From assembly GCA_021793595.1 (NCBI GenBank), contig JAJYSL010000007.1, positions 1-64,000 on the forward strand: DNA of 64,000 bases. The letters run 5' to 3'. The DNA comes from Acidobacteriota bacterium (GTDB lineage Bacteria; Acidobacteriota; Terriglobia; Terriglobales; Acidobacteriaceae). The notes beneath the pieces are model-generated. The model did not search any database, was not told the origin of the DNA, and worked only from the letters and a program-made list of their open reading frames with translations. This document shows positions 24,194 to 62,470 of the stretch, piece by piece; position 1 is the first letter of the stretch, and each line of letters opens with the position of its first letter. Made by a program: the position numbers and the translations under genes.

Positions 24194-24209
24194 TGTGTCC
24201 TGCATCACA
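24194..24209. promoter_or_regulatory. Candidate Crp/Fnr box upstream of the hemX-like/hemACD operon
   Basis: TGTGT-CCTGCA-TCACA, one mismatch from TGTGA-N6-TCACA. TATACT at 24,234-24,239 is a likely -10 element; the box centre lies about 44 bp before the implied start site, near the class II activator position. No good -35 is present, as expected for an activated promoter. The 310-base gap between mutS and the hemX-like gene holds nothing else recognisable. Confidence 0.5.
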
Positions 24210-24276
24210 GTAAAGTGCCTTTTGTCTGAGCTATATACTTACTTGTACGTTCTCTTTGGGAGCGGTTCTTCGAGCG

Positions 24277-25098
24277 ATGGCAATGTATCTCATCTGGCTG
24301 CGGGTCGCACTGGTTCTGTACGGCGTCTCCAGCCTTACGGTCATTCCAGATGTGCTGACCGGCCATGATCGCTGGCGTAAATTTGTGCATCCGGTCTGCG
24401 TTTCCGCCTTTTATTTTCATCTGGTTGCGCTGGTGGAGATGATGCGTCTGGCCCATCACTGGGTACCGGCCAGTCTGCATGAAGTTGAAACCTCATTTGC
24501 CCTTGTACTGACGATCACGTTTTTGGCGATTTATTGGCGCTACCGGGCTATTTCCTTCGGATTATTTGTGTTGCCCGTCATTTTTCTGCTTTTGCTTCTG
24601 CCGGCAGCGCAGCCGGACCACGCCCCTGTGTCCAGCCAGTGGATGCATAACGGGTGGATTCTGCTGCACATCGCGCTTCTGCTGGTGGCGTATACGTTAT
24701 TGTTGTTCAGTCTGCTCTCCAGCCTGCTCTACCTGATCCAGGAACGGCGTTTGAAGAACAAGCAAATCGGCGGCATTTTCAGCCACCTGCCGCCGCTCGA
24801 TACCATCGATCACATCGCGTTTGTGACCCTCGTCATCGGCTTGCCCTGCATGACGCTGGGTCTTCTGGCCGGCGCTTTGATAGCCCAGGAAAGCGTGGGA
24901 GCCGCCTATTTTCTCGACCCGAAGGTGCTGCTCTCGATTGGCATGTGGGTGCTCTACGTGTGCATGCTTTACGTCCGTCGCCACACCGGCTTGCGCGGCA
25001 AGAGGGCCGTCTATTTATCGTCTCTGGTCTTTCTGATGGCGCTCACGGTCTGGGTCGCAAACCAGTTCAGCACTGTCCATAGGTTCCCAGCGCCATGA
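24277..25098 (+). CDS. HemX/CcsA-like membrane protein
   Basis: About 273 residues with eight predicted transmembrane helices, in the CcsA/HemX superfamily. True CcsA heme-handling proteins carry a tryptophan-rich WWD motif; the corresponding stretch here (AAYFLDPKVLLSIGMW) lacks those tryptophans. It is therefore closer to HemX, which sits beside hemA in many bacteria and affects glutamyl-tRNA reductase levels. ATG 24,277 is preferred to a TTG 21 bases upstream. Its stop overlaps hemA as ATGA. The role in heme supply is inferred from position and family. Confidence 0.7.
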   Translation: MAMYLIWLRVALVLYGVSSLTVIPDVLTGHDRWRKFVHPVCVSAFYFHLVALVEMMRLAHHWVPASLHEVETSFALVLTITFLAIYWRYRAISFGLFVLPVIFLLLLLPAAQPDHAPVSSQWMHNGWILLHIALLLVAYTLLLFSLLSSLLYLIQERRLKNKQIGGIFSHLPPLDTIDHIAFVTLVIGLPCMTLGLLAGALIAQESVGAAYFLDPKVLLSIGMWVLYVCMLYVRRHTGLRGKRAVYLSSLVFLMALTVWVANQFSTVHRFPAP

Positions 25099-26552
25099 AC
25101 TTCGTCCTCATCGGCGTCAATCACAAATCTGCGCCACTGCAGGTGCGGGAGAGGCTTGCCATTCCATCCGCACGCCTGCAGGAAGCTACGCTCTCATTGC
25201 TGAGCGTGCCCTGTGTGCGCGAGGGCATGATTCTTTCCACTTGCAACCGGGTCGAATTCCTCACCTACCAGGAACCGGCGCAGGCCGATCTGCTGGAGTT
25301 TATCCAGAACTATTTTGCCATCGGTAAAGAAGCACTCCACCCCTACATGTATGAATATCGCGCGTCGGAAGTCGTTCGCCACGTGTTCCGTGTAGCCTCC
25401 AGTCTGGACTCGCTGGTTGTTGGCGAGCCGCAAATCCTGGGGCAGGTAAAAGAGTCCTACTCCTTGGCGAGATCGATCGGCAGCATCAACACCAACTTGG
25501 ATCCGCTGATGCAGCGCGCCTTTACTGTCGCCCGCAAAGTGCGCAACCAGACCAGCATCGGCATTTCTTCGGTTTCGATTGCGTCGGTGGCCGTGGATCT
25601 AGCCCGCAAAATCTTCGGTTCATTGCAGGGCAGAACCGTTCTAATGATGGGCGCAGGCAAGATGGGAGAACTGTCGGTCCGCAGCATGATGCAGCACGGG
25701 GCCAGCACGATTTATATCTGCAATCGCACCTATGAACGCGCTGTTGAGCTGGCCGGTAAATTTCCCGGCGTACGTTCTGAGAGCGGCACTGCGGCAGGTC
25801 AAACCGCAATCGTTCAGCCCATCTCGTACGACTTGCTACACCAGTATGCTGCCACAGCGGACATCATCGTCAGCTCCACCGGGGCCGAGGATCCTGTTTT
25901 TAAGCGCGCGCATGCGGAGCAATACATGCAGCGACGCAAGCAGCGGCCCATGTTTTTTATCGACATTGCTGTGCCCCGCGATGTGGATCCGGAGATCAAC
26001 AGCGTGGAAGGTGTTTTCGTCTACAACATCGATGACCTGCAGGCCGTCGCTGTCTCGAACATGTCCAGCCGCACCAAGGAAGCGAGGGACGCCGAGTTGA
26101 TTATTCGTACCGAAGTGGAGCGGTATACGCAGCGAATGCAGTCGCTCAACGGAGTGCCTTCGATCGTGGCCTTGCAGCAGACTCTGGAAGATGTCCGGCA
26201 GAATGAGATGCGCCGCATGGCGCCTCGTTTGGCGCAGTTGTCCAGCGAGCAACTGCAAGCTGTCGAGCAGATGACTCGCGCTCTGGTTCACAAGTTGCAA
26301 CATGCGCCAATACAGGCCATCAAGCGCGCCGCGCAAGAAGGCGACCGCGAAACCTTGGCCGTAATTCAAAGTGTTTTCGATCTGGAGCATCGCGAAAAGT
26401 CCACCGAAGCGACCGGGACTGCCGCGTCGATCGCTTCACAAAACGATTCCCAAGAGACCGTATTCATCCCCACTCCTGACGCGACAGCAGTCACGAGCGC
26501 GGATGCTACCCCCGCGAAACCGGCCGAAGTCAAGCAGGAGAGCTTACTTTGA
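25095..26552 (+). CDS. hemA: Glutamyl-tRNA reductase
   Basis: A 485-residue enzyme that reduces glutamyl-tRNA to glutamate-1-semialdehyde, the first committed step of tetrapyrrole synthesis by the C5 route. Visible are GVNHKSAPL at the N-terminus, the catalytic Cys in LSTCNRVEF, and the NADPH-binding GAGKMGELS. A Ser/Thr/Ala-rich tail of about 50 residues extends past the dimerisation domain. It is coupled by overlap to the hemX-like gene and to hemC, matching a heme operon. Confidence 0.94.
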   Translation: MNFVLIGVNHKSAPLQVRERLAIPSARLQEATLSLLSVPCVREGMILSTCNRVEFLTYQEPAQADLLEFIQNYFAIGKEALHPYMYEYRASEVVRHVFRVASSLDSLVVGEPQILGQVKESYSLARSIGSINTNLDPLMQRAFTVARKVRNQTSIGISSVSIASVAVDLARKIFGSLQGRTVLMMGAGKMGELSVRSMMQHGASTIYICNRTYERAVELAGKFPGVRSESGTAAGQTAIVQPISYDLLHQYAATADIIVSSTGAEDPVFKRAHAEQYMQRRKQRPMFFIDIAVPRDVDPEINSVEGVFVYNIDDLQAVAVSNMSSRTKEARDAELIIRTEVERYTQRMQSLNGVPSIVALQQTLEDVRQNEMRRMAPRLAQLSSEQLQAVEQMTRALVHKLQHAPIQAIKRAAQEGDRETLAVIQSVFDLEHREKSTEATGTAASIASQNDSQETVFIPTPDATAVTSADATPAKPAEVKQESLL

Positions 26553-27490
26553 TTCGCATTGGGAGTCGTGGCTCCGCCCTTGCGCGCTGGCAGGCCGATC
26601 ACATCGCTGCGGAGTTGCGTGATCGCGGTCACCAGGTCTCCATAGAGATTCTGGTCACGACGGGCGATCGCGTACAGCACGCGCCGTTCATGCAGGTTGG
26701 CACCAAGGGAATGTTTACCAAAGAGATAGAAGAGGCGCTGGCCGACGAGCGCATCGATCTCGCCGTTCACAGCTTGAAAGACCTGCCGACGGAGTTGTCG
26801 GAAGAATTCATCATCGCGGCCATTCCAAAGCGTGCCGATGCACGTGACGCGTTCGTGTCTGTTCGCCATAACGATTTTGCCTCGTTGCCCGTTGGTGCGG
26901 TTGTTGGCACAAGCAGTTTGAGGCGCCAGGCACAATTGCGCGCATTGCGCTCCGATCTCGACATTCGCGAACTGCGCGGCAACGTCGACACTCGGCTGCG
27001 CAAACTGCACCAGGGACAATACGACGCCATCATTCTGGCTGCCGCGGGTTTGGATCGGTTGAGTCTCGCTGCCGATGTGAAGGAGCTATTTTCACCGCAA
27101 CAAATGTGTCCCGCAGCGGGGCAGGGAGCACTCGCCATTGAGTGCCGGACAAACGATCGCGCGACACTTGCTGCTGTTTCCGCTCTGGATAATGCCGGAA
27201 CACATTTTGCAGTGCTTGTCGAGCGTGCTGTGCTGGCCACCTTAGGCGGCGGCTGTCATCTTCCGGTGGGCGTGCATTGCGAGCCCGCAAACAATGGCTG
27301 GACCGTGATGGGCGTGGTGGCTCGTCCAGACGGATCGCAAATGTTGCGCGAACAGATGGAATTGCATCAAGAAAACCAGTCGGCTGAAGACGCGGGGTGG
27401 GCCATGGCAAATCGATTGTTAGCGCGCGGCGCAGCGGAATTTCTCGCGGCTGCTGAATCCGCACCTCCGGCGGGAAATGCAGTCAGATGA
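26549..27490 (+). CDS. hemC: Porphobilinogen deaminase (hydroxymethylbilane synthase)
   Basis: A 313-residue enzyme joining four porphobilinogens. The dipyrromethane cofactor Cys lies in LGGGCHLPVG near residue 240, and the Arg-rich substrate loops (GSRGSALARWQ, GTSSLRRQAQL) are present. The start is TTG at 26,549, overlapping the hemA stop; AGGAG eight bases upstream supports this non-ATG start. It overlaps hemD by 4 bp. Confidence 0.94.
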   Translation: MIRIGSRGSALARWQADHIAAELRDRGHQVSIEILVTTGDRVQHAPFMQVGTKGMFTKEIEEALADERIDLAVHSLKDLPTELSEEFIIAAIPKRADARDAFVSVRHNDFASLPVGAVVGTSSLRRQAQLRALRSDLDIRELRGNVDTRLRKLHQGQYDAIILAAAGLDRLSLAADVKELFSPQQMCPAAGQGALAIECRTNDRATLAAVSALDNAGTHFAVLVERAVLATLGGGCHLPVGVHCEPANNGWTVMGVVARPDGSQMLREQMELHQENQSAEDAGWAMANRLLARGAAEFLAAAESAPPAGNAVR

Positions 27491-28287
27491 AACCGCTCGC
27501 CGGACGGAAAATTCTCATCACCCGCGCCAGGCATCAGGCGCAATCGCTGGCAAAAGCGCTAGAAGAGAAAGGCGCCACCGTCGTCGCGATCCCCGCCATT
27601 GAAATTGTTCCGCCCGATTCCTACGACGCGCTGGATGCGGCTCTGTGGAACGCCAAAAGCTATCAGTGGATGGTCGTGACCAGCGCCAACGGCGCGGAAG
27701 TTTTGGCCGAACGAATTGCCGCTTTGAGGCTGCCGCTCGCCGTGCTCGATGCTTTAAAAATTGCGGCGATCGGTCCAGCCACCGCGCGCGCTCTTGGGAG
27801 ACTAGGTTTACACGTTGATGAAGTGCCGAAGCAAGCCATTGCAGAGTCGCTGGTGGAATCGCTGCGAGACCAGGTCAGCGGCAAGAATGTTTTGTTGGTC
27901 CGCGCCAAGGTGGCGCGCGACGTGCTTCCGGAGGAACTTCGAAACGCGGGCGCCCACGTGGATGTGGTGGATGCCTACCAGACCGTGGTTCCTGCGACTT
28001 CCGCGGATGATTTGCGGCTTCTTTTTGCCGCTCCCAGTCGGATCTCCGATATTGTCACGTTCACCAGCTCCTCCACGGTGACAAATTTTTTTCGCCTTCT
28101 GCGCGAAGCGAATGTACCCGCCTGGCCGCCTAGTATGGCAGCGGCCTCCATAGGTCCCGTCACGAGTCAAACCTTAAGAAATCACGGCATCGAGCCTGCC
28201 GTTGAGGCAATGGAATACACCATCCCCGGTGTAGTCGAAGCTCTCTGCCGCTGGTCGAAGTCGCTCGCGTCACCCACAAATCGCTAG
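27487..28287 (+). CDS. hemD: Uroporphyrinogen-III synthase
   Basis: A 266-residue two-domain cyclase with the weakly conserved family pattern: ILITRARHQAQ start, DWMVVTSANGAE-like segment, FTSSSTVTNF and GPVTSQTLR near the end. It closes hydroxymethylbilane to uroporphyrinogen III. It overlaps hemC (ATGA) and meets nth on the opposite strand with a 4-base overlap at the 3' ends. hemB, hemE, hemL and the late steps other than hemQ are not in the window. Confidence 0.88.
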   Translation: MKPLAGRKILITRARHQAQSLAKALEEKGATVVAIPAIEIVPPDSYDALDAALWNAKSYQWMVVTSANGAEVLAERIAALRLPLAVLDALKIAAIGPATARALGRLGLHVDEVPKQAIAESLVESLRDQVSGKNVLLVRAKVARDVLPEELRNAGAHVDVVDAYQTVVPATSADDLRLLFAAPSRISDIVTFTSSSTVTNFFRLLREANVPAWPPSMAAASIGPVTSQTLRNHGIEPAVEAMEYTIPGVVEALCRWSKSLASPTNR

Positions 28288-29015: not shown

Positions 29016-29019
29016 TGCT

Positions 29020-29853: not shown

Positions 29854-29869
29854 TGTGTTCGCCGTCACA
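29854..29869. promoter_or_regulatory. Candidate Crp/Fnr box between hemQ and dedA
   Basis: TGTGT-TCGCCG-TCACA, the same one-mismatch variant as the hemX/hemA box. For hemQ (minus strand), CATGAT at 29,833-29,828 could be a -10 at class II spacing, giving a short leader that includes the AGGAGG. For dedA, TATACT at 29,897-29,902 is a good -10 but is about 6 bp too far for class II placement. Confidence 0.45.
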
Positions 29870-34137: not shown

Positions 34138-36702
34138 TCAGAACTCATAATGCAGACCCATGGTCACGTTATTCGCATGAAAGTTCCGAGGTGAGGTTTC
34201 GCCAGCAGGCGATATAGTGAGACCAGTCTGAAGTCCCGCCAGTGTGGGGGAGTTGCAGGGAACCGGGGTCACCGGAGACGTTGGCGTGGGATTGGAAGTG
34301 CTGCATAGAGCTGCACCGGAAGGTCCGCCCTCGCCATAGCCGTAGTAGTTGTATTCTGCCCTCACAATCCATGCCTTACGAACCGTCCATGCAAGATTTA
34401 CGAAGGGAGACTGGTATGTCGAAACCAGCGAGCCGTTCACATCTCGGGCATCGTTGAAGAATCGGCTACCGCTCACGGAGCTGACCGTATATCCAATGTT
34501 GGATTGAACCCGGTTGGTCGGGGACAGATGGAGAGCCACCGATCCATACTGCGTGGGAGCATCCATGAAATCCTTGACCGGCCCGAACATGTAGTACTGG
34601 GCTCCACGAACGGTCCCGTCCGGGCAGGCCGTACCGCTTGGCGTTGCCGCCCCGGGCTGGGTAGGACTGGAGCCGGCTAGGTAGCAGATATTTGTAGACG
34701 TATACACATCGCCGTAGGAGTAGTTGAAGTCGAATCCGTAGTGTGCATTCGGCGACATCACTGCACCCACGCTCACGACCCGGCTGTGATCGACATGATC
34801 CAGCGGTCCGTCCGGAGAGGGCGTGCCGGTGTTGTGGGTGTTGTTATGCCGCTCCACGTCGTTAAAGGCGCCCGAAATCGTCGCCCAGGACTTTGGCCTA
34901 ATAATCGTATGCACTCTATACCGCTGCATTTGCCGCGGAGTCATCGGAGTGAATGCATTGTCGTTATAGAACAGTCCCAAGCTGCCATTGAGATCCCAAT
35001 GTTCCGTGTGACGCAGGGCGACGTTAAAGATTCCCCCGTTCTCGTGAATGGTGACCGTTCCGTTGTTGGTCGCGCCCGGGGCCAGCGGAGCGCTATGAGG
35101 AATGCCTTCCGCGATGATGTGGGTTTGGTAGCGATAGGTCACCGAGAAGGTCGCGCGGGACCAGCCATCCCACGTTGCCATCAGATTGTTGGTCACGAAC
35201 TTCTGTCCAAAAAAACCTGGCTGAGGCGTGCCGTTGGGGTTGCCCTCAACCGTGACTGGATTTCCAGGAGTCAGCGGACCCAGGTAGTTGAGGGTCTCGT
35301 TCGGATTTGGGGGTGTAACCAGCGTGGACCCTTTGGAGATATTCGCGACACCGGGTTGCTGAACATTGGAGAAGACGATCTGATCGGCAACACTGATCGT
35401 TTTCGTCGCATTCCAATTAATGCCGTAATCGACGGCGATGACCTTCCGCTTGGCGTTCGCGTTGCCGGTATACGTGATGGAACGAACCGCCCCGGACAGG
35501 CCCTGGAAGTTCTCATAGTATTTGGGAAGGTTCATGTTGGCTTCGGTGTATCGAACATCGCCGTTCATCGCGACATTCGGGATGCTGGAGCTTTGGAACC
35601 GGAAAATCTCCGTCGGATACAGAATGCGTGTTGGCTGGCTGCGCAGGTAGCTGATGGCAACAGCGCACGCCGGATTGATAATCGGCAGTCCGCCCGGGGT
35701 TTGCGCCGGCGACAGAATTGTGTAGGGTGCGACGCCCATGCTTCCTGTGTTGCAGCTACCGAGGCCGTATGGCGAAAGGCTGTCCCAGCCGCCCGGAGAC
35801 ACCGGTGTTCCGTTCGCCTCCTGTACGATGAAGTCGCTCGGGGCCAGAGTAAAGTAGGAGCCGTTCTTATAATGATCGACCTCTTCTTCAAAGGTTAGCG
35901 TGGTCCTCGGCACGGGTTTCCAGTCGATCCCTCCGATGAAATCGTCGGTGCTGTTGCGCTGGTACTGCTCGAGCAGTTGGGTATTGGTGCCGATCGAGGC
36001 TGCAAAGAAGGGGCTTGATGCGCCTGGGCTCAGGCTCGGGCCCTGGAATACATTTTGCGAGTATGCGAAGCGGTACGTGACCTTGGAGATGGGAAAGATT
36101 GTGAGACTCGTGTCCGTCATTCTGCGCACCGTGTTGTAGAGGAACGGCGACTGCTTCACCTGCGGCCACGCAAGCGAGCCCGTGGGCGCATTGGTTGGGC
36201 CGATCGGAATCGACTGTCCCGATGGAATATTGGGGTTGCCCAGCAGATCGTAGTCGAAGTACTGCCGGTCGCGACGGAACCGTCCTGAGAACTGATAGAT
36301 TTTGCCTTTGGAGAAGTCCATCGTGGCTAGATCGTATGGGTTTCCGCCCCAGCCGCTGCTGAAAGCCGTTAGGGAGTCGACAAGGGTATGCTTTGTCGTC
36401 GGCAACGCCTGCATCTGAAAAGAACTGCCAAGCACGCGCGGGCCTGACTGGACATTCACCAGTGTGTCATACATGGCCCCACTGCCGGTAAGGCTGGTCA
36501 TGTTGCCACCCAGATTGATGGACCCGTGAAGTATGTATCCATTTGGGGCAACTGCCGGTGTATCCGGCATTGCAACCTGGCCCACAGAGGTCCCTGTAGC
36601 GATCAGCAAGATTGCGATTCCAACGCTCTCGGCGATATGCAGGGGCATTGCGGAAGAGAGCTTTGGATAGTACCGCTTGAACAGCCCTTCTGTTTTCTTC
36701 AT
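34138..36702 (-). CDS. MtrB/PioB-like outer-membrane beta-barrel porin
   Basis: About 854 residues, with an N-terminal signal (AILLIATGTSVGQVAM) and then alternating-hydrophobicity strands rich in Tyr/Thr/Asn, ending in the outer-membrane sorting pattern VTMGLHYEF with a C-terminal Phe. MtrB is about 700 residues and PioB about 810, so the size fits. It follows a DmsE/MtrA-type decaheme gene, the defining arrangement of porin-cytochrome complexes, where the barrel sheaths the decaheme to carry electrons across the outer membrane. The N-terminal CxxC typical of Shewanella MtrB was not seen. ATG 36,702 has a GTGAGGATTGAA ribosome site. Function is inferred from architecture and neighbours. Confidence 0.7.
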   Translation of the reverse strand: MKKTEGLFKRYYPKLSSAMPLHIAESVGIAILLIATGTSVGQVAMPDTPAVAPNGYILHGSINLGGNMTSLTGSGAMYDTLVNVQSGPRVLGSSFQMQALPTTKHTLVDSLTAFSSGWGGNPYDLATMDFSKGKIYQFSGRFRRDRQYFDYDLLGNPNIPSGQSIPIGPTNAPTGSLAWPQVKQSPFLYNTVRRMTDTSLTIFPISKVTYRFAYSQNVFQGPSLSPGASSPFFAASIGTNTQLLEQYQRNSTDDFIGGIDWKPVPRTTLTFEEEVDHYKNGSYFTLAPSDFIVQEANGTPVSPGGWDSLSPYGLGSCNTGSMGVAPYTILSPAQTPGGLPIINPACAVAISYLRSQPTRILYPTEIFRFQSSSIPNVAMNGDVRYTEANMNLPKYYENFQGLSGAVRSITYTGNANAKRKVIAVDYGINWNATKTISVADQIVFSNVQQPGVANISKGSTLVTPPNPNETLNYLGPLTPGNPVTVEGNPNGTPQPGFFGQKFVTNNLMATWDGWSRATFSVTYRYQTHIIAEGIPHSAPLAPGATNNGTVTIHENGGIFNVALRHTEHWDLNGSLGLFYNDNAFTPMTPRQMQRYRVHTIIRPKSWATISGAFNDVERHNNTHNTGTPSPDGPLDHVDHSRVVSVGAVMSPNAHYGFDFNYSYGDVYTSTNICYLAGSSPTQPGAATPSGTACPDGTVRGAQYYMFGPVKDFMDAPTQYGSVALHLSPTNRVQSNIGYTVSSVSGSRFFNDARDVNGSLVSTYQSPFVNLAWTVRKAWIVRAEYNYYGYGEGGPSGAALCSTSNPTPTSPVTPVPCNSPTLAGLQTGLTISPAGETSPRNFHANNVTMGLHYEF

Positions 36703-36761: not shown

Positions 36762-37688
36762 TTACCGAATGAAAGCAGCGTTGATGTTGGAGCCATGAAT
36801 CATGGTGTGGCAACTGGTGCAGGGCGTAAGTTCTTGCGATCCGTTGCCCATTCCGTGAATGTTATCGGCACTAACATTGCTATGGCACTGGTTGCACAGC
36901 GTATTGATGCTCGGCATGTTCAACAGCCGCGCGTTTTGCGAACCGTGCGGGGTGTGGCATGCCATGCAGCCTTCTCCTTTGACCACAGCGTGCTCATATA
37001 CGAACGGCCCACGCACATCCATATGGCATTTCGTGCAGATCATGTTCTGATCGGCCGTGATTCTCAAATTGCTGCTTTGGAAAGTTCCGTGGACATCGTG
37101 ACAATCCGTGCATTTGATTCCACCCTCGTTCACCGGGTGGTGGAATGGCATGTCAAATGCCCCCTTCACATCGGTGTGGCAGCTCATGCAGAGCGTTGGC
37201 TGCGGCAGTTTCAGCAGGGCTTGTTCGCTTTGCGGCGCGTGAACGCTATGGCAGCTGATGCAACTCAGTCCGGCCTTTGCATGGGGCGAGCGCTCAAAAT
37301 TCGGGTGTATTCCCGCGTGACAACCCAGGCAGGTGGTGTCCGTCTCTTTTGCGGAGGCCTTACTGGGCAGAAAGATCTTAGTAATGTCTCCGCCGCCCTC
37401 CACGTGCGCCTGACCCGGTCCGTGGCAGCTCTCGCAGGTAATCCCCTTGCCGTTATGCATCATGGCAAGCTTCGAATGCGGATTGTTGGCAAAGTTCTTG
37501 CCGATCTCTGCGTGACAAGTGATACAGGTATCGGAGCCCACATAGCCAGGCGCTCCTGCCGTGGCCGATGGGGGAGTTTGGGGTGCGCTGGCTTGTTGGC
37601 CCGGTTTACTCGCGGCGTTCGCCCGCCCGGTATTCCAAAGTCCGGGAAGTGCGATTACCAACGCGACACATAGGAACAAACGTCTCAT
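36762..37688 (-). CDS. DmsE/MtrA-type decaheme cytochrome c
   Basis: About 308 residues with a signal peptide (LFLCVALVIALPGLW) and exactly ten CxxCH heme motifs: CITCH, CESCH, CLGCH, CISCH, CMSCH, CTDCH, CTKCH, CMACH, CNQCH, CTSCH. The C-terminal CHTMIHGSN ending is typical of the DmsE family. In MtrA/PioA/DmsE systems this protein is the electron wire inside the outer-membrane barrel. It is the first gene of a three-gene minus-strand operon with the porin and a monoheme cytochrome. ATG 37,688 follows GGAGG. Direction of electron flow (export to an acceptor or uptake from Fe(II)) cannot be told from sequence. Confidence 0.9.
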   Translation of the reverse strand: MRRLFLCVALVIALPGLWNTGRANAASKPGQQASAPQTPPSATAGAPGYVGSDTCITCHAEIGKNFANNPHSKLAMMHNGKGITCESCHGPGQAHVEGGGDITKIFLPSKASAKETDTTCLGCHAGIHPNFERSPHAKAGLSCISCHSVHAPQSEQALLKLPQPTLCMSCHTDVKGAFDMPFHHPVNEGGIKCTDCHDVHGTFQSSNLRITADQNMICTKCHMDVRGPFVYEHAVVKGEGCMACHTPHGSQNARLLNMPSINTLCNQCHSNVSADNIHGMGNGSQELTPCTSCHTMIHGSNINAAFIR

Positions 37689-37842
37689 AGAGCCTCCACG
37701 TTCATGGTTCAAAGAATCTTTACTGAATATGACAATCGATGCCGAATCCATAAAACACTGCTTCTGCCAGTTCTTCTACTTTGCGCAAACCCATAAAATT
37801 GTTTCTACGTCAATCGAAGTTAGAATGAGTCGCTTGTCTTGG

Positions 37843-37860
37843 CGGTGATGGAAATCACCG
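37843..37860. promoter_or_regulatory. Candidate Crp/Fnr box upstream of the decaheme-porin operon
   Basis: CGGTGAT-GGAA-ATCACCG is a perfect inverted repeat (7-bp arms) containing GTGA-N6-TCAC. The centre is 163 bp before the decaheme ATG. TAACTT on the minus strand at 37,822-37,817 keeps the key -10 positions at exact class II spacing, though it is a weak hexamer. The surrounding 488 bases (37,689-38,176) hold no convincing gene. Confidence 0.55.
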
Positions 37861-38176: not shown

Positions 38177-38878
38177 TTAGATGGAGATACCCTTCATCTG
38201 CTCCTGCTGCAAAATTTCTACCGACGCGCCGTGGATGCGAATCCATCCATGCTGACGAAAACTGGCCAAGGTGCGCGTGACAGTCTCGCGCGTGGTGCCA
38301 ACCATCTCTGCAATCTCCTGGTGTGTCAGCGCCAGATTGAAACGCTTCTTCCCATCGATGTCAGTCACAGTTGTGCCCCAATCCAGCAAGAGCTTGGCAA
38401 TGTTACCGGCGACGGTACCGGAAAGGGCGACGCGACGGGCATTCACCAGCATTTCGTGATTTATATTGGCGAGCATCTGAATCACCTGCCAGCTTGCATT
38501 GCGATGACGGAAGAGAAACTTCAGGAAATCGCGATGGTCGATTTCCTTCACAGTGCACGATCCATAGGCTTCTGCTGTAACTTCGTATTGGGTCTCCCGT
38601 ACCGCAGAAACCAGTCCCAGAATTGCACCCGGGATGGCGATCTTCAGCAGCAGGCTTTTTCCATCCTGCGAAGCGGTGGAGATTTTCACACGACCATCAC
38701 ATAGAATTCTGACGAAGCGCGGCGGATCACCTTGTCGCATCAGCATTGCTCCATCGCGATATTCGACGCGCACGCTGATGGCATCCAAGTCAGAGATAGC
38801 CTCGGGCGGTAGATTGTGAAATGCCCCCTGTTCCGCGCGACAATATGAATGCACGCGGCAAGCTGACGAGGATGACAT
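38177..38878 (-). CDS. Crp/Fnr-family transcriptional regulator
   Basis: About 233 residues: an N-terminal segment, a cyclic-nucleotide-binding-like beta-roll (RQGDPPRFVRILCDGRVKIS ... AIPGAILGLVS), a long dimerisation helix and a winged HTH with LTHQEIAEMVGTTRETVTRTL. The recognition helix has the R-E-x3-R arrangement that in E. coli CRP (Arg180, Glu181, Arg185) reads TGTGA. The N-terminus has C7-x2-H10-x2-C13-x7-H21 where iron-sulfur members show a Cys cluster, so an altered metal, heme or redox sensor is possible. GGAGG sits six bases before ATG 38,878. It lies directly upstream of the decaheme operon in the same orientation, with eight candidate target boxes in the window. Confidence 0.88.
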   Translation of the reverse strand: MSSSSACRVHSYCRAEQGAFHNLPPEAISDLDAISVRVEYRDGAMLMRQGDPPRFVRILCDGRVKISTASQDGKSLLLKIAIPGAILGLVSAVRETQYEVTAEAYGSCTVKEIDHRDFLKFLFRHRNASWQVIQMLANINHEMLVNARRVALSGTVAGNIAKLLLDWGTTVTDIDGKKRFNLALTHQEIAEMVGTTRETVTRTLASFRQHGWIRIHGASVEILQQEQMKGISI

Positions 38879-40158: not shown

Positions 40159-40172
40159 GTTGCCCGAGCAAC
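40159..40172. promoter_or_regulatory. Inverted repeat GTTGC-N4-GCAAC (operator 1)
   Basis: GTTGC-CCGA-GCAAC. Its centre is 31 bp (about three helical turns) from that of the next, longer copy of the same half-site pair, so a dimeric regulator could bind both on one face of the helix. The shape resembles MarR-type operators; no MarR gene is in the window. Confidence 0.45.
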
Positions 40173-40182
40173 CAGTTTGGCC

Positions 40183-40210: not shown

Positions 40211-40255
40211 TCAAGAGGTCAGGGGAGACGAAATGTGGATAACTTGGACGGAGAA

Positions 40256-40269
40256 GTGACCTAAGTCAC
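40256..40269. promoter_or_regulatory. Candidate Crp/Fnr box upstream of gpmA
   Basis: GTGA-CCTAAG-TCAC, an exact match to the eight core bases of TGTGA-N6-TCACA and a 5-bp-arm palindrome. It lies 170 bp before the gpmA start. The expected -10 region is weak (TTCGAT at 40,292-40,297). This 380-base gap between adh and gpmA also holds the two GTTGC-N4-GCAAC repeats. Confidence 0.5.
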
Positions 40270-40439
40270 CTGCGCGATGGCGTACCCGTGGTTCGATTAG
40301 GATAAGAGCAGCGAACCGAAGAGAGATTTCTGGTTGGGAACGAGCACGGCTCCAGTTCGAAGTGCGGACAGCGGAGACCGCGATACGGCAAAACCACCCC
40401 CCCCTCGCCAAGGGCGAGCAAAACAAAAGGAAAAGGATG

Positions 40440-41971: not shown

Positions 41972-41977
41972 ACAATT

Positions 41978-55809: not shown

Positions 55810-55825
55810 TGTGATAACTGTCACA
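55810..55825. promoter_or_regulatory. Perfect Crp-type box upstream of the 55.9-60 kb electron-transfer operon
   Basis: TGTGA-TAACTG-TCACA, an exact match to the CRP consensus. TATATT at 55,846-55,851 is a good -10; the implied start is 55,858 and the box centre is at about -40.5, the class II position. The first gene starts at 55,935. The 341-base gap between the CocE-type gene and this operon otherwise contains no recognisable gene. Confidence 0.65.
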
Positions 55826-55934
55826 GGCAATGATCCATTGAGTTTTATATTCTTCACAGGTTGAGAGTTGAGAGCCATAAGGTGTGGAAAGCCCTTGAAA
55901 AGGGACTGAATCTAGTTGGTTAAAGGATCAACGT

Positions 55935-56258
55935 ATGAATCGACACATAACAGTACTAGCCACCCTGGCGTTCGTCGGCCTGGCTACGTGCACCGTGCTT
56001 GCCCAAAGCAGCGGAGCGGATATTTACAAAAGCAAATGCGCAATGTGTCATGCGGCGGACGGCAGCGCCAGCTCGGGTGCGGGCAAGGCGATGCACGTAC
56101 CTTCGCTCCTGACGCCGGAGGCGAAGAAGGCATCCACAGCGAGTTATGAGGCGATCGTGAAGTCAGGCAAGGGAAAAATGCCGGCCTATGGCACGAAACT
56201 GTCGGGTCCAGAGATCAAATCTGTGGTCGCCTACATTCGCACCTTGCAGAAGAAATAG
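55935..56258 (+). CDS. Small monoheme cytochrome c (quinol-oxidising operon)
   Basis: A 107-residue exported class I cytochrome c paralogous to the one at 33,768-34,091: the same CAMCHAADGS heme site and the same distal Met in KMPAYG. Signal peptide ends VLAQSSG. It opens the operon, 104 bases before the 11-heme protein gene, with a hairpin between them. It is a likely periplasmic shuttle between the quinol oxidase and the outer-membrane conduit; that link is inferred from paralogy. Confidence 0.9.
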   Translation: MNRHITVLATLAFVGLATCTVLAQSSGADIYKSKCAMCHAADGSASSGAGKAMHVPSLLTPEAKKASTASYEAIVKSGKGKMPAYGTKLSGPEIKSVVAYIRTLQKK

Positions 56259-56269
56259 CGGGAGTTAGG

Positions 56270-56292
56270 GAGGGGGAAGAATATCCCCCCTC
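56270..56292 (+). terminator. GC-rich hairpin between the monoheme and 11-heme genes
   Basis: GAGGGGG at 56,270-56,276 pairs with CCCCCTC at 56,286-56,292, loop nine bases. Partial termination here would give more of the first cytochrome than of the downstream membrane components. Confidence 0.4.
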
Positions 56293-56362
56293 ATATTGAA
56301 CATTGGTGCACTGGTTGTTTTTTGTATTCCGCGCACAGAACGCGGCAGGGGTCAGAGACCCA

Positions 56363-57712
56363 ATGAAAACCATTTCCTCCGTAGAGATGTCCTTCCACAG
56401 CACTCCGGCCGAGCGTGACCCTGATGTTATCTGCAGAGGCGACGCTGGCCGGATGCTTGTTTTCGAACAACTTTCCGTAGACGCCGCGAGGCAGCAAAAC
56501 GAATTGGCTGCGCGGAGACTGGCTGGTCGCGGAAGAATGTTGCTGGCTTGCCTGGTGGCTTTGCTGCTGTTGAGCTTGCCGCGAGTGATGCTGGCGAAGG
56601 ATGCGGACTGCCTCTCCTGCCACGCTGACAAGACCATGCAGGACGCGTCGGGAAAAAATGTAGGCGTGGACGCTTCGCTGTTTCATTCCAGTATTCACGG
56701 CAGCCTGGCTTGCAGCGATTGCCATACTTCCATCCACGAGTATCCGCATCCGGATCATCCGGCGGCGGTGCAATGCGCGACTTGCCATGCCGATCAGGCG
56801 AGCGGACTTGCGGGCAGCGTGCATGCGAAGGCCAGCGCGCAGCCATGCTTGAGTTGCCATGGCAGCCCACACGCGATTTTCCCCAAAGGCGATGCACGGT
56901 CGGCGGTGTATCCGTTGAACATTCCACGGACGTGCGGGACCTGCCATGGCGATCACTTGCTGGCAAAAAAATATGGCCTGCAGAATGTGTATTCGGCGTA
57001 CATGGATTCGATCCATGGGTATGCGGTGAGCAAAGAGGGGCTGCTGGTGGCGGCGAACTGCATGAGCTGCCACGGATCGCACCACATTCTGGGTCACAAC
57101 GACCCGAAAAGTCCGACCAACAGAGCCAATATCCCTACGACCTGCGGATCGTGCCATGGCGGAGTGAAGGCGCAATACATGCGCGGCATGCACGGCGAGC
57201 AAGTGGCAAGCGGCAACATGAAGGCGCCAGTATGCACCGACTGCCACACGGCGCACGCAATTCTGGAGCCGACGCTGGCGAGTTTTCGTATGCAGTCGAC
57301 GCCGATTTGCGGCTCGTGTCATCAGGGCAGGTTCGCCACCTACGGAGACACGTTCCACTCGCAACTGGGTCTGCTGGGCGGATATGTGCAGACGGCGCGT
57401 TGCTGGGACTGCCACGGAGCGCACGAAGTATTGCCGGCCTCGGATCCGCGCTCGCCGGTGGCCAAGGCAAACCTGATCAAAACCTGCGGCAAGTGCCATG
57501 CGGACGCCAATGCGAGTTTTGTGGAGTATCAGCCGCATGCGAATCCACGGAATCGAAAGCTGAATCCGGCGCTGTATTACATCCGCTTGTTTATGAACCT
57601 GCTGCTGTGGGGCGTGCTGGGCTTCTTCTCCCTTCACACCCTGCTGTGGTTCCTGCGCTCGAAGTACGAACAGCGCAAGGCCGCGTCGGCAGGAGAGGAG
57701 AAACATGACTGA
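56363..57712 (+). CDS. 11-heme membrane-anchored cytochrome c
   Basis: About 449 residues with eleven CxxCH motifs in order: CLSCH, CSDCH, CATCH, CLSCH, CGTCH, CMSCH, CGSCH, CTDCH, CGSCH, CWDCH, CGKCH. An export helix (LLACLVALLLLSL) precedes them and a C-terminal helix (LFMNLLLWGVLGFFSLHTLLWF) anchors it. Several downstream CxxCH are followed by Gly-x-His, as in cytochrome c3-type multiheme proteins. The start is uncertain (56,303, 56,363, 56,450 and 56,537 are in frame). It is coupled to the cytochrome b gene by overlap. Together they resemble a CbcL-type pair, in which a multiheme protein takes electrons from a b-type quinol oxidase. Confidence 0.85.
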   Translation: MKTISSVEMSFHSTPAERDPDVICRGDAGRMLVFEQLSVDAARQQNELAARRLAGRGRMLLACLVALLLLSLPRVMLAKDADCLSCHADKTMQDASGKNVGVDASLFHSSIHGSLACSDCHTSIHEYPHPDHPAAVQCATCHADQASGLAGSVHAKASAQPCLSCHGSPHAIFPKGDARSAVYPLNIPRTCGTCHGDHLLAKKYGLQNVYSAYMDSIHGYAVSKEGLLVAANCMSCHGSHHILGHNDPKSPTNRANIPTTCGSCHGGVKAQYMRGMHGEQVASGNMKAPVCTDCHTAHAILEPTLASFRMQSTPICGSCHQGRFATYGDTFHSQLGLLGGYVQTARCWDCHGAHEVLPASDPRSPVAKANLIKTCGKCHADANASFVEYQPHANPRNRKLNPALYYIRLFMNLLLWGVLGFFSLHTLLWFLRSKYEQRKAASAGEEKHD

Positions 57713-58574
57713 GCCTACTGCGATTAAGACGGCCCCGGCGGCGGAGACACAGAAGAACGAGACATACTATTTGCGATTTACCCTGCCGCAGCGATATTTG
57801 CATGCGGTGCTGTTCACGTCGTTTCTGGGACTGGCGGCGACTGGGCTGCCGATGCGCTTCAGCGAGAATGCTCCGGCAAGATTTGTTGCGCGCGCGGTGG
57901 GTGGCTTCGGGGCAATTCTTTTCCTGCATAAATTTTGCGCGATCGTGCTGACGCTGGCGTTCCTCTACCATGTGAAGGACATCATTGCGCGGGCGGTGGT
58001 GCAAAAGGAAAAAGGGCTGTTCTGGGGGCCGACGTCGATGGTGGCGAACTGGAAGGACGTGAAGGACCTGGTGGGACACCTGCGGTGGTTTGTCGGGCTG
58101 GGACCGAAGCCGCGATTCGATCGGTACGCCTACTGGGAGAAGTTCGACTACTGGGCGGTTTTCTGGGGCATGGTGGTGATTGGGTTTTCCGGGTATGCCA
58201 TGTGGTTTGCTCCTTTTTTCGCAAAGTTCCTGCCGGGATGGGCGTTGAACGCGGTGTTGGTAGTTCATGGGGAAGAAGCTCTGCTCGCCATTCTCTTCAT
58301 TTTTTCGATTCACTTTGTGAATACACATCTGCGGCCGGGTAGTTTCCCGATGGACATGGTGATCTTTACGGGGAAAGAAACGGAAGAGGAATTTCGGAAG
58401 AAGCGGCCGCTGGAATTTGAGCGTCTCGCTCGACAGGGAAAGCTGGAAGCCAAGGCTGCCGATAAGCCAGTGTACTGGTGGGTCAATTTTGCGCGGGTAG
58501 TAGGATTCACCGCAATTCTGATAGGGCTGCTGCTTCTTGTCTTGACATTGATTGCCTATTTCGGCACGGTATAA
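57705..58574 (+). CDS. b-type quinol dehydrogenase membrane subunit
   Basis: A 289-residue cytochrome b of the HydC/FdnI-like (Ni-hydrogenase/formate dehydrogenase gamma) family with four main helices and ligand-type His residues in RYLHAVLF, FLHKFCA, VVHGEEALL and SIHFVNTHL. It would pass electrons from membrane quinol to the 11-heme protein. It overlaps that gene by eight bases and is followed by the ImcH-like gene 16 bases on. The CbcL of Geobacter fuses such a b subunit to a multiheme part; here the parts are separate proteins. Confidence 0.75.
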   Translation: MTEPTAIKTAPAAETQKNETYYLRFTLPQRYLHAVLFTSFLGLAATGLPMRFSENAPARFVARAVGGFGAILFLHKFCAIVLTLAFLYHVKDIIARAVVQKEKGLFWGPTSMVANWKDVKDLVGHLRWFVGLGPKPRFDRYAYWEKFDYWAVFWGMVVIGFSGYAMWFAPFFAKFLPGWALNAVLVVHGEEALLAILFIFSIHFVNTHLRPGSFPMDMVIFTGKETEEEFRKKRPLEFERLARQGKLEAKAADKPVYWWVNFARVVGFTAILIGLLLLVLTLIAYFGTV

Positions 58575-58590
58575 CCGCTCACGCGAGGGA

Positions 58591-60018
58591 ATGATGTTTG
58601 GAACATTAGAGAAGAAGCTGCGACCGGTCCTGTTTTACGGGAACAATCCGCTCAGTTTGATCGGGGGTGCGCTGACCAGCGCTGCTGCCTTTGTGATGAT
58701 CGGTTTCTGGGTGGTGACGACCTTTGGTCACGGCGGTTCTCATAATCCCTATCTCGGGTTGATTTTTGATTTATTTCTGCCGGGTTTGTTTGTCCTGGGC
58801 CTGATTTTGATTCCCATTGGGATCGCGTTACGGCGTAAGCAGATGGTGGCGTCGGGGCACGTGCCCTCTGTCTATCCGGAAATCGATCTCCAGAACCCCG
58901 TGTTCCGACGCGGCATTGAGGTGGTGATTGCGGCGACGTTCATTAACTTTGTGATTGTGGGCACGGCCAGCTATCGCGGCGTCTCCTACATGGATTCGCC
59001 AAACTTTTGCGGCCAGACGTGTCACGTAATGGCGCCGCAGTGGACGGCATACCAAGTCTCTCCGCACTCGCACGTGGCCTGCGTGGAGTGCCATATCGGG
59101 TCCGGATTCGACGCGGCTGTCCAGGCCAAGATGAACGGCACCAAGCAATTGGTGGAAGTTGCCTTGCATACCTATCCGACACCGATTCGGGCATCCCTTT
59201 CGGTGTTGCGTCCGGCGCGCGCGACCTGCGAGCAGTGCCACATGCCGACCAGGTTTGTCGGCGACCGGCTGCTGGTCAAGACTTCCTTCGGCGACGACGA
59301 AAAGAATTCCATCACCCGCACGGTACTGGTGCTCCATCTTGGCGGGGTCGATTCTCTCTCGCACTTGAGCGGAATTCACGGCCATCACCTGAACGACTTC
59401 GAGTACGTTGCCACGGACGATACCGATCAAAACATCATTGCCGTGAAGTCGCGCAACGCGGATGGGACCATCACCGAATATGTGAGTTCCGACTGGAAGG
59501 GGCCGGTGAAAGGAGTGACGCGCGTGATGGATTGCATGGACTGCCATAACCAGGCGACCCACATCTTCCAGACGCCGCAGGCGGCCGTCAATGAAGCGAT
59601 GCTGGATAACAGCGTGAACCCGGCGCTGCCGTTTGTCCACAAAGAAGGATTGCAGCTGGTCCAGGCGAATTATTCCTCACAGGAGGATGCCGCGGCGAAA
59701 ATCACGAGCGGACTGGAGAAGTACTACAGTACGCAATACCCGGCGATCTGGAGCAGCCAGCGGGCACAGATCGAAGCCTCGGCGCGGACACTGGTTGCGA
59801 TCTACAAGCGGAATGTCTTCCCTTCGATGAAGGTGAAATGGGGCACGTATCCGAACAACATAGGACACAACGATTTTCCCGGCTGTTTCCGCTGCCACGA
59901 TGGGAACCATGTATCCAAAGATGGGAAAACGCTGACCAACGACTGCAGTGTGTGTCACAACCTGCTGGCGGTGGATGACAAGAATCCCAAGGTGCTGACC
60001 GATCTGGGCATGCAGTAG
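58591..60018 (+). CDS. ImcH/NapC-like hexaheme inner-membrane cytochrome
   Basis: About 475 residues. Three N-terminal helices (LSLIGGALTSAAAFVMIGFW, GLIFDLFLPGLFVLGLILIP, EVVIAATFINFVIVGTASY) lead into a NapC/NirT-type periplasmic domain with six heme sites. The first is CX3CH (C-GQT-CH followed by a Met), then CVECH, CEQCH, CMDCH, CFRCH and CSVCH. ImcH in Geobacter, a NapC-type quinol oxidase with a similar membrane part, gates electrons to higher-potential acceptors. The GAGGG ribosome site fits ATG 58,591 or 58,594. It ends the operon. Confidence 0.85.
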   Translation: MMFGTLEKKLRPVLFYGNNPLSLIGGALTSAAAFVMIGFWVVTTFGHGGSHNPYLGLIFDLFLPGLFVLGLILIPIGIALRRKQMVASGHVPSVYPEIDLQNPVFRRGIEVVIAATFINFVIVGTASYRGVSYMDSPNFCGQTCHVMAPQWTAYQVSPHSHVACVECHIGSGFDAAVQAKMNGTKQLVEVALHTYPTPIRASLSVLRPARATCEQCHMPTRFVGDRLLVKTSFGDDEKNSITRTVLVLHLGGVDSLSHLSGIHGHHLNDFEYVATDDTDQNIIAVKSRNADGTITEYVSSDWKGPVKGVTRVMDCMDCHNQATHIFQTPQAAVNEAMLDNSVNPALPFVHKEGLQLVQANYSSQEDAAAKITSGLEKYYSTQYPAIWSSQRAQIEASARTLVAIYKRNVFPSMKVKWGTYPNNIGHNDFPGCFRCHDGNHVSKDGKTLTNDCSVCHNLLAVDDKNPKVLTDLGMQ

Positions 60019-61193: not shown

Positions 61194-61209
61194 TGTGATT
61201 AGCGTCACC
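61194..61209. promoter_or_regulatory. Candidate Crp/Fnr box upstream of stress protein 1
   Basis: TGTGA-TTAGCG-TCACC, one terminal base from consensus, with an exact GTGA-N6-TCAC core. It is 73 bp before the start codon on the minus strand. No clear -10 was found at class II spacing, so the architecture may differ. Confidence 0.5.
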
Positions 61210-61371: not shown

Positions 61372-62274
61372 TTAGAGCAAAACTGTCTGATGACTATGCA
61401 GATGTGCTGCCTGAATATGGCGTGGCGCATGCACATCGCGGAGAATCATGGCCGGACAGCGTGCCATACGCAACACACGGGCCATCAAGCCGGGACGCAT
61501 GTGGGAGAGCAACTCGCCTCCGCGGTGCACGCTCATGACCAGGAGATCCGCTTGCGAGTCCTCGGCCATGCGGAGAATCTCCGCTGCCGGTTCGCCTTCG
61601 CGAATCAGGCATTGCGGCATGATGGCCAACCAGGCTTCGCGGCTCATCATTGCTTCCAGGGCGTCGAACTGGCCTTCAGAGGGACTGGCAATTCCTTCTT
61701 CGCGCACGGTGAAGATGGTGAGGCGGGCGTGGTGACCGCTGGCGATTTCGCCGGCCAGTCGGGCTGCGTCAGTGACGCCTTCTGCGGTGTCGCAGGCCAG
61801 CATGAGATGCTTCCACGGAATAGTTTTCTGTGCCATGGCGGCAGCCACCGGGCCGACGACGATTACCGGGTGGTCCGATTTGCGAATGACTGCCTCTGCC
61901 GTGGAGCCGAGGAGTAAGCGCTCCAGGCCGGTCTTCTCTTCCGTGCCGACAACGATGCAGGCAGCGTGGAGGGCATCGGCGAGGCGGGTGATTTCATGCG
62001 CGGGAGCGCCAAAGACGAGCGTGCCTTCGACCTGGATGCCGGTGTCATGCAATTTTTGTTGGGCGGCATGCACGTATTCTTCAAGCTCCAGTTCCTGGAT
62101 TCGCAACAAATCCGGCGAATCGTCAGTAACGATGGGCATAACGTAGACGAGATGCAATGGCCGTGATTCCTGCTGGGCCAACTTCACCGCGTATTCTACA
62201 ATCGACTTTGACATCTGGGAAAAATCGATCCCAACGAGAATCGGGCCTTGGGTCAGTTCCGGGTCAGTTCGCAT
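61372..62274 (-). CDS. Tandem universal stress protein 2
   Basis: A 300-residue double Usp-domain protein. The first domain has the ATP-binding VGTEEKTGLERLLLGSTAE pattern; the second (MSVHRGGELLSHMRPGLMAR) is diverged. The poly-G ribosome site AAAGGGGGG precedes the ATG. Its promoter carries the best-spaced Crp/Fnr-like box in the window (centre exactly -41.5 from the predicted start). Confidence 0.85.
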   Translation of the reverse strand: MRTDPELTQGPILVGIDFSQMSKSIVEYAVKLAQQESRPLHLVYVMPIVTDDSPDLLRIQELELEEYVHAAQQKLHDTGIQVEGTLVFGAPAHEITRLADALHAACIVVGTEEKTGLERLLLGSTAEAVIRKSDHPVIVVGPVAAAMAQKTIPWKHLMLACDTAEGVTDAARLAGEIASGHHARLTIFTVREEGIASPSEGQFDALEAMMSREAWLAIMPQCLIREGEPAAEILRMAEDSQADLLVMSVHRGGELLSHMRPGLMARVLRMARCPAMILRDVHAPRHIQAAHLHSHQTVLL

Positions 62275-62297
62275 AAATTTGGCCCCCCTTTAGCGAG

Positions 62298-62340
62298 ATG
62301 ATAGGAGTAGGCAAACAAAAAACGTGTGACGGAGCGCACA
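62298..62340 (-). promoter_or_regulatory. Class II Crp/Fnr-type promoter of stress protein 2
   Basis: Box TGTGA-CGGAGC-GCACA at 62,325-62,340 (one mismatch) and, on the minus strand, TATCAT at 62,303-62,298 (5 of 6 matches to TATAAT). The implied +1 is 62,291 (an A) and the box centre is at -41.5. The 17-base leader holds the ribosome site. Confidence 0.6.
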
Positions 62341-62426
62341 CTATCGCGTGACGCCTGGCACCTGCCGATGCAGCCCCGGGGAGGCGCGACCGCTGACCGG
62401 GGCGAATTGGCGAATTTGGCGACAAC

Positions 62427-62470
62427 GGTGATGGTCGTCACAGGGGGACGCGCAGTCGGCGCTTTATGCT
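62427..62470 (+). promoter_or_regulatory. Class II Crp/Fnr-type promoter of the phosphotransacetylase-family gene
   Basis: Box GGTGA-TGGTCG-TCACA at 62,427-62,442 (exact GTGA-N6-TCAC core) and TATGCT at 62,465-62,470 as -10; box centre about -42.5. The gene starts at 62,577. The 302-base divergent gap thus carries one box for each gene. Confidence 0.55.

What the first reader, a model, noticed from the sequence alone, without database searches (positions are those of the whole stretch)
24194..62442. Eight TGTGA-N6-TCACA-like sites suggest one Crp/Fnr regulon joining heme synthesis, electron export, stress and acyl-phosphate metabolism
I read these sites directly: 24,194; 29,854; 37,843; 40,256; 55,810; 61,194; 62,325; 62,427. 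Five have an exact GTGA-N6-TCAC core, and all eight are intergenic upstream of genes. At equal base frequencies one exact core is expected about once per 65 kb, so five in intergenic DNA is far above chance. A Crp/Fnr gene at 38,177-38,878 has an R-E-x3-R recognition helix like CRP, which reads TGTGA. The aerobic oxidase cluster has no such site.
Basis: partly seen in the sequence, partly recalled or inferred. Interest (0 to 1): 0.87.

Follow-up and report, generated by a model that had tools for sequence, protein, structure and literature searches.

The report
Conserved redox regulon in Acidobacteriaceae
The repeated TGTGA-N6-TCACA sites are real, conserved gene switches in front of heme, electron-export, stress and acyl-phosphate genes of an acidobacterium, and are probably read by a family of cysteine-bearing Crp/Fnr sensors rather than only by the regulator gene next door.

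Summary
Seven of nine TGTGA-N6-TCACA matches with at most one mismatch are intergenic (intergenic DNA is 16% of the window); 1000 shuffles of the intergenic DNA gave at most 3. Only the 6-bp spacing is enriched. Orthologous promoters keep the half-sites while the centre drifts: ccsA-hemACD, mtrA, the cytochrome operon, usp1 and ptb. The 29854 site is kept in 1 of 11 loci; gpmA is equivocal. A -10-like hexamer lies 21-24 bp downstream of 38 of 86 sites, the class II activator layout.

The Crp gene at 38177-38878 is not supported as sole regulator: orthologues occur in 3 of 200 family genomes, and close genomes whose drafts lack it keep the sites. A better candidate is a widespread Crp/Fnr subfamily that joins an FNR-like C-X2-C-X8-C...C signature to a CRP-like R-E-x3-R helix, often has the same site before its own gene, and lies beside mtrA, multihaem or ptb genes in nine genomes. 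The window's Crp clade lacks these cysteines. Rex is contradicted. Sensing, binding and expression are inferred. New variant of a known kind.

The parts
   Evidence: pair kept in G202, G064, G001 and, with 2 mismatches in the upstream member, G002
24194..24209. site TGTGTCCTGCATCACA, 68 bp before ccsA (24277); TATATA at 24232-24237, 23 bp after the TCAC
   Evidence: 8 of 9 closest relatives keep a match with at most 2 mismatches (5 of them at most 1); none in G157
24277..28287 (+). ccsA (cytochrome c assembly), hemA, hemC, hemD, probably one operon
   Evidence: Pfam
29854..29869 (.). site TGTGTTCGCCGTCACA between cld/hemQ (start about 29805, -) and dedA (29929, +); weakest case
   Evidence: kept in 1 of 11 cld loci
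34138..36702 (-). large protein beside the decaheme, MtrB-like by position only; no HMM hit
36762..37751 (-). MtrA-like decaheme cytochrome (DmsE family, 10 CXXCH); true start probably near 37688
   Evidence: the four closest relatives align from residue 12-22 on
37844..37859 (.). site GGTGATGGAAATCACC upstream of mtrA, with TCTAAC on the minus strand at 37824-37819, 20 bp after the core
   Evidence: half-sites kept in 4 of 4 genus-level mtrA loci
38177..38878 (-). Crp/Fnr regulator, 233 aa, helix TTRETVTR, FNR-type cysteine set absent, cAMP contacts RS absent
40255..40270 (.). site AGTGACCTAAGTCACC upstream of gpmA (40437); conserved in G002, degenerate in G001, not found in G173
55810..55825 (.). 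perfect site TGTGATAACTGTCACA, 110 bp before a cytochrome c gene; TATATT at 55846-55851, 21 bp after the TCAC
   Evidence: kept with the -10-like element in the 4 closest loci
55935..60018 (+). electron-transfer genes, probably an operon: monohaem cytochrome c, multihaem protein (11 CXXCH), cytochrome b561, NapC/NirT-type protein (5 CXXCH)
61194..61209 (.). site TGTGATTAGCGTCACC, 73 bp before usp1 (60168-61121, -)
   Evidence: equivalent at -1319 to -1384 from ptb in 6 of 6 genus-level loci
62325..62340 (.). site TGTGACGGAGCGCACA between usp2 (61372-62274, -) and ptb
   Evidence: 6 of 6 genus-level loci hold a match with at most 1 mismatch in this region, in some of them shifted downstream
62427..62442 (.). 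site GGTGATGGTCGTCACA upstream of ptb; TATGCT at 62465-62470, 23 bp after the TCAC
   Evidence: exact GTGA-N6-TCAC core in 6 of 6 genus-level loci
62577..63539 (+). phosphate acetyl/butyryl transferase (ptb/pta)

Best explanation
The sites are operators (consensus TGTGAY-N4-RTCACA) of a Crp/Fnr-type regulon of Acidobacteriaceae. A dimer binds each palindrome about 41 bp upstream of the transcription start and activates from the class II position. It couples c-type cytochrome maturation and heme supply (ccsA-hemACD) to an outer-membrane decaheme conduit (mtrA), a multihaem/NapC electron-transfer operon, universal stress proteins and phosphotransacylase, as expected for a switch to low-oxygen or extracellular-electron respiration. 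The most likely reader is a widespread Crp/Fnr subfamily ('CrpX', my name), often with the same site before its own gene, that has four conserved cysteines (C-X2-C-X8-C and one 39 residues later) like the Fe-S ligands of FNR but a CRP-type R-E-x3-R recognition helix. The Crp gene in the window is a cysteine-poor relative that probably shares the operators as a local second input. Shown: sites, conservation, spacing, promoter geometry, cysteine and helix patterns, gene linkage. Inferred: binding, activation, Fe-S cluster, oxygen or redox signal, and that this genome carries CrpX.
For: Intergenic, spacing-specific enrichment. Conservation at orthologous promoters, with GTGA and TCAC invariant at the cytc6, mtrA and 62427-type sites while 11-20% of all columns are invariant in the aligned upstream regions. 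TAnnnT at gaps 21-24 in 38 of 86 non-identical sites, against a mean of 1.36 and a maximum of 6 per other gap. Genome-wide, perfect sites 296 vs 13 for the backward-pattern control in 33 genomes with CrpX, 73 vs 13 in 28 without. CrpX at E<=1e-50 in 33 of 61 relatives; cysteine pattern in 30 of 30 fetched members, perfect site within 250 bp upstream of the own gene in 12 of 30. Site with at most one mismatch upstream of ccsA in 16 of 31 genomes with CrpX vs 2 of 25 without. CrpX-type gene within about 0.6-1.6 kb of mtrA, multihaem or ptb genes in nine genomes. Bases beside the half-sites, not used in selecting sites, are Y....R in 125 of 159 distinct sites, as in E. coli CRP sites (recalled).
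Against: The presence/absence association is confounded by phylogeny: within the family-level set the density difference is not significant (30 vs 7 genomes, p=0.11), and for perfect ccsA sites alone the Fisher p is 0.06. G007, G022 and G224 have 18, 7 and 12 perfect sites but no CrpX hit at the threshold, and the draft G173 lacks CrpX yet keeps sites. G139 and G201 have CrpX but only 0 and 2 perfect sites genome-wide. 6 of the 10 top-scoring CrpX genes (L168-L173) lack a site upstream of their own gene. 8 of 10 close genomes hold 2-5 Crp/Fnr paralogues. On the tree most of the distant 'CrpX' proteins fall in clades apart from the genus-level one, so they are not strict orthologues. No genome is held for the window. 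No binding or expression data.
Confidence: 0.65

Rival explanations
1. The window's own Crp (38177-38878) is the regulator of all sites.
For: Next to mtrA; R-E-x3-R invariant in the 23 aligned rows; synteny gpmA-adh-crp-mtrA kept in G002, with a site before mtrA.
Against: Orthologues in 3 of 200 family genomes. Sites persist in genomes whose drafts lack it (G202, G064, G157, G173). No site at its own promoter.
Confidence: 0.15
2. Several Crp/Fnr paralogues with the same helix share one operator set, and different signals converge on it with no dominant regulator (overlaps with the best explanation, which gives CrpX the main part).
For: 8 of 10 close genomes have 2-5 paralogues, and the helices read are R-E-x-[VI]-[TS]-R. 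Genomes without a CrpX hit can have many sites (G007, G224, G022). G017 has a second Crp/Fnr-type frame after its first, before mtrA, though it seems to end before the HTH.
Against: Of the paralogues seen, the cysteine-bearing type is the one found widely and repeatedly linked to regulon genes.
Confidence: 0.3
3. The palindromes are operators of the NADH-sensing repressor Rex, whose site TTGTGAA-W4-TTCACAA also contains TGTGA-N6-TCACA.
For: Same half-sites and spacing (S. aureus Rex site as given in an abstract start of the listing, PMC2883068).
Against: Inner A....T in 1 of 159 sites and a TTGTGAA half in 1 of 159; the Rex DNA-binding domain PF06971 reaches its cut-off in 0 of 10 genomes (two weak sub-cut-off hits), while 6 of 14 control genomes reach it.
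Confidence: 0.02
4. Chance palindromes in GC-rich promoter DNA.
For: At two mismatches the whole-window count is near expectation; the 29854 site is not conserved.
Against: Shuffles, spacing control, conservation in relatives, and -10 phasing.
Confidence: 0.02

Closest known systems
Escherichia coli CRP regulon
   Same: Operator TGTGA-N6-TCACA, R-E-x3-R recognition helix, class II position near -41.5 (recalled).
   Different: The cAMP-contact pair R-S of the effector domain is absent in both the window Crp and CrpX (positions recalled); targets are heme and electron-transfer genes.
FNR (E. coli FNR; FnrL/FnrN)
   Same: Three N-terminal cysteines plus one in the effector domain in the CrpX subfamily, low-oxygen type targets (FNR features recalled).
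   Different: FNR reads TTGAT-N4-ATCAA through V-E-x2-S-R (recalled); no such motif peaks in the window's intergenic DNA. Cysteine spacing is C-X2-C-X8-C. No cluster shown.
Bacillus Fnr
   Same: A [4Fe-4S] Fnr (PMC3520743, passages); an orthologue, T. tengcongensis Crp2, is predicted to use a CRP-like site (PMC1274295, passages). So Fe-S sensing with a CRP-type operator has a precedent.
   Different: Cluster cysteines are in a C-terminal extension there; here they are N-terminal.
HcpR of Desulfovibrio
   Same: Predicted operator wTGTGAnnnnnnTCACAw (PMC1274295, passages).
   Different: HcpR controls hcp/frdX and lacks the FNR-type cysteine motif (same passages).
Rex
   Same: Half-sites and spacing overlap.
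   Different: Inner bases and gene presence contradict it.

Membership tests
CRP/FNR superfamily (window Crp and CrpX) | cNMP-binding beta-roll plus Crp-type HTH | tested here: met
   Pfam PF00027, PF13545, PF00325 over cut-off for the window Crp. CrpX matches CRP/FNR models of NCBIfam, all below their cut-offs; its model (pLDDT 85.8) matches CRP folds, TM about 0.8.
CRP (cAMP receptor protein) | R-E-x3-R recognition helix and TGTGA-N6-TCACA sites | tested here: met
   that the protein binds the sites is not tested
CRP (cAMP receptor protein) | cAMP-binding residues (R82, S83 of E. coli CRP) | tested here: not met
   alignment; E. coli sequence and positions from memory
FNR (oxygen-sensing Fe-S regulator) | four conserved cysteines able to hold a [4Fe-4S] cluster | tested here: met
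   CrpX: 30 of 30 fetched members have C-X2-C-X8-C plus C 39 residues later. Sequence pattern only; no cluster tested.
FNR (oxygen-sensing Fe-S regulator) | the same cysteines in the window's own Crp | tested here: not met
   A1 columns: C10 0 of 23, C22 0 of 23, C13 7 of 23, C60 17 of 23; 1 of the 57 closest listed proteins (the window's own included) has the motif
FNR (oxygen-sensing Fe-S regulator) | TTGAT-N4-ATCAA operators and V-E-x2-S-R helix | tested here: not met
   no spacing peak in window intergenic DNA; helix R-E-x-[VI]-[TS]-R
FNR (oxygen-sensing Fe-S regulator) | oxygen-labile cluster and O2-dependent DNA binding | not testable with these tools
   needs protein
HcpR | no FNR cysteines; regulates hcp | tested here: inconclusive
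   CrpX has the cysteines, the window Crp does not; no hcp among the window proteins that were scanned, which were not all
Rex | TTGTGAA-W4-TTCACAA operator and a rex gene | tested here: not met

The most novel reading that the evidence does not exclude
Acidobacteriaceae run their switch to extracellular or low-oxygen respiration with an FNR-type cysteine-cluster sensor that reads CRP-type operators, and some lineages, including the window's, have added a twin without the cysteine set beside mtrA that reads the same operators, so that one set of promoters answers both an oxygen signal and a second, oxygen-independent signal.
Probability: 0.35. Interest if true: 0.65.

Novelty: new variant of a known kind. 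Interest (0 to 1): 0.5.

Why it matters
Acidobacteria are common in soils and acid mine waters (general knowledge), yet I saw no described oxygen or electron-acceptor regulon for them in three full-text searches of the open-licence library: Acidobacteria with Crp, FNR, regulon and binding site (six papers, judged from titles and abstract starts, none on this); Acidobacterium capsulatum with oxygen, FNR and transcription (none); Terriglobia with Crp, Fnr and anaerobic (none). Two searches on decaheme or electron-transfer terms listed no paper whose title concerns such a regulator in Acidobacteria. Subscription papers were not searched. The finding gives a testable consensus, a promoter geometry, a target list and a candidate sensor, and it links heme supply to the decaheme conduit under one switch.

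Tried and rejected
Rejected: chance; Rex; FNR-type or NtcA-type motifs in the same intergenic DNA (no peak at their spacing); cAMP-type effector pocket. Inconclusive: association of CrpX presence with sites (at ccsA Fisher 5e-4 with up to one mismatch but 0.06 for perfect sites; Mann-Whitney 2e-6 overall but 0.11 within the family-level set), confounded by kinship and draft genomes. The upstream fragments for G026 and G001 were only 69 and 158 bp. The usp1 promoter alignment picked the usp2 promoter in relatives and is not used; usp1 conservation rests on positions relative to ptb. The first structure model of CrpX was poor (pLDDT 49.5); a second with 73 sequences was good (85.8), but of the 50 PDB matches listed the first are actinobacterial CRPs and an FNR stands at rank 50, so it does not tell CRP from FNR. 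In one search the script printed a wrong 'RE' for four of 30 helices (L177, L179, L183, L191); these were not read. Gene starts of L177, L179 and L183 there are unsure, so distances to own-gene sites are rough. Pfam gave nothing for 5 of 10 proteins near perfect sites. The first genome-contig scan with the single protein found no relative; the second with alignment A1 found 18 loci. A plasmid search found only short local matches in three records.
Full report
Observation. A scan of the window finds nine TGTGA-N6-TCACA matches with at most one mismatch: 24178, 24194, 29854, 55810, 61194, 62325 and 62427 between genes, 33233 and 41556 inside genes. Gene boundaries come from my own ORF scoring, with a few starts set by hand. 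In 9,991 bases of intergenic DNA the seven sites compare with a mean of 0.24 and a maximum of 3 in 1000 dinucleotide shuffles, and every other spacing from 0 to 16 gives at most one; in coding DNA the 6-bp spacing is not special (2 matches; other spacings 0-3). With up to two mismatches over the whole window there is no significant excess (30 seen, 24.4 expected).

Setting. The window is acidobacterial: the named close relatives of its Crp protein are Acidobacteriaceae or Acidobacteriota MAGs, and a contig of an Acidobacteria MAG (L002) has the same order gpmA-adh-crp-mtrA-large protein-(cytochrome c region)-glycogen debranching gene. No whole genome is held for the window. Target genes: ccsA-hemA-hemC-hemD; cld/hemQ and dedA; an MtrA-like decaheme with ten CXXCH; gpmA; a cytochrome c / multihaem / b561 / NapC-type gene set; two usp genes; and ptb.

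Conservation. Orthologues were sought in 61 relatives for ccsA and in 41 for cld, mtrA, ptb and the multihaem gene. Upstream of ccsA, 8 of the closest nine (79-98% identity) keep matches with at most two mismatches, and all nine keep a TATATACTTA-type element; farther out, with ccsA proteins only 38-44% identical, 7 perfect sites appear 91-137 bp upstream. Over all 56 genomes with ccsA, 18 have a site with at most one mismatch within 300 bp; the shuffle rate would give about 0.4. Counting sites with at most one mismatch or an exact GTGA-N6-TCAC core: mtrA (500 bp) 4 of 4 genus-level loci, 12 of 25 loci in all; ptb (1.6 kb, covering usp1 and usp2 promoters) 11 of 13 loci, and 6 of 6 genus-level loci hold all three sites; multihaem gene (1.1 kb) 4 of the 4 closest loci, 11 of 26 rows in all (two of these rows are one place in G173); cld 1 of 11. 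gpmA: kept in G002, degenerate in G001, not found in G173. Alignments show GTGA and TCAC invariant at the cytc6, mtrA and 62427-type sites, central bases changing, and surrounding DNA mostly diverged; the 62325-type site is less regular and shifts between genomes.

Promoter geometry. Over 86 non-identical sites from five promoter families, TAnnnT occurs 21-24 bp after the TCAC in 38, against a mean of 1.36 per gap elsewhere (maximum 6). If that hexamer is the -10 element, the site centre lies near -41, the class II activator position. The sites include orthologues and are not independent. Bases flanking the centre, which were not used in selecting sites, are Y....R in 125 of 159 distinct sites, as in E. 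coli CRP sites (recalled) and unlike Rex.

Which regulator. The window Crp's orthologues were found in 3 of 200 family genomes. Ten close genomes searched with the same profile show that G202, G064, G157 and G173 lack it in their drafts but keep sites; G064 and G173 show gpmA(-adh)-mtrA with no crp between them. The paralogues read all have R-E-x-[VI]-[TS]-R, so the helix does not assign the regulon. One paralogue, here CrpX, is in 9 of these 10 genomes, and its family (E<=1e-50) is in 33 of 61 relatives. All 30 fetched members have C-X2-C-X8-C plus a cysteine 39 residues later; 12 of 30 have a perfect site upstream of their own gene, but 6 of the 10 top-scoring ones have none. CrpX-type genes lie beside ptb (G139, G201, G187), mtrA (G017, G005, G010) or a multihaem gene 41-43% identical to the window's (G006, G012, G015) (gene maps of G017, G010 and G005). 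The window Crp clade sits next to cysteine-bearing proteins on the tree (96/88 support), and its basal members (L026 of G187, P0056) still have the cysteines, which suggests loss of the set in the window's clade. The tree also shows that most CrpX hits in distant genomes form clades apart from the genus-level one, so 'CrpX' is a subfamily, not one orthologue.

Genome-wide. Perfect sites number 296 in 33 CrpX-bearing genomes (2.3 per Mb) against 13 for the backward pattern, and 73 against 13 in 28 genomes without (0.73 per Mb). Within the family-level set the difference is not significant (p=0.11). Some genomes without a CrpX hit have many sites (G007 18, G224 12, G022 7) and some with CrpX have few (G139 0, G201 2), so other paralogues probably read the motif too.

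Known precedents. Desulfovibrio HcpR is predicted to use wTGTGAnnnnnnTCACAw but lacks FNR cysteines, R180 and E181 of the helix go with G3 and A6 of the site, and an orthologue of B. subtilis Fnr is predicted to use a CRP-like site (PMC1274295, passages). Bacillus Fnr holds its [4Fe-4S] cluster with C-terminal cysteines (PMC3520743, passages). The combination seen here, N-terminal FNR-like cysteines with a CRP-type helix and operators, tied to a decaheme conduit and heme supply, is therefore a new variant of a known kind.

Limits. Nothing here shows binding, activation, an Fe-S cluster or an oxygen response. The second CrpX model is a good CRP fold but cannot show metal binding.

Noticed in passing
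window 40160-40215; L002 1841-2113: gpmA upstream DNA has inverted repeats of the form AGTTGCTnAGGCAACTA (two copies in L002), possibly a second operator unrelated to Crp.
   Followed up: no
window 41281-41857: HTH and RelE-type genes, a likely toxin-antitoxin pair (Pfam).
   Followed up: partly
window 41858-44096: About 2.2 kb without a convincing gene; a 496-codon open frame (42208-43698) has no Pfam hit.
   Followed up: partly
L225 (G017:C39:100000-118000): Two Crp/Fnr-type frames in tandem, then mtrA, an mtrB-like gene and multihaem, b561 and NapC-type genes, with seven sites of at most one mismatch in one stretch; the second regulator frame seems to end before its HTH.
   Followed up: partly
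L230 (G002:C55), site at 4036: A perfect site lies before a gene set that includes a cytochrome b with cytochrome c domains, a further possible target.
   Followed up: partly
window 29020-29805: Cld-family protein, best NCBIfam match HemQ (below cut-off), two genes after hemD on the other strand.
   Followed up: partly
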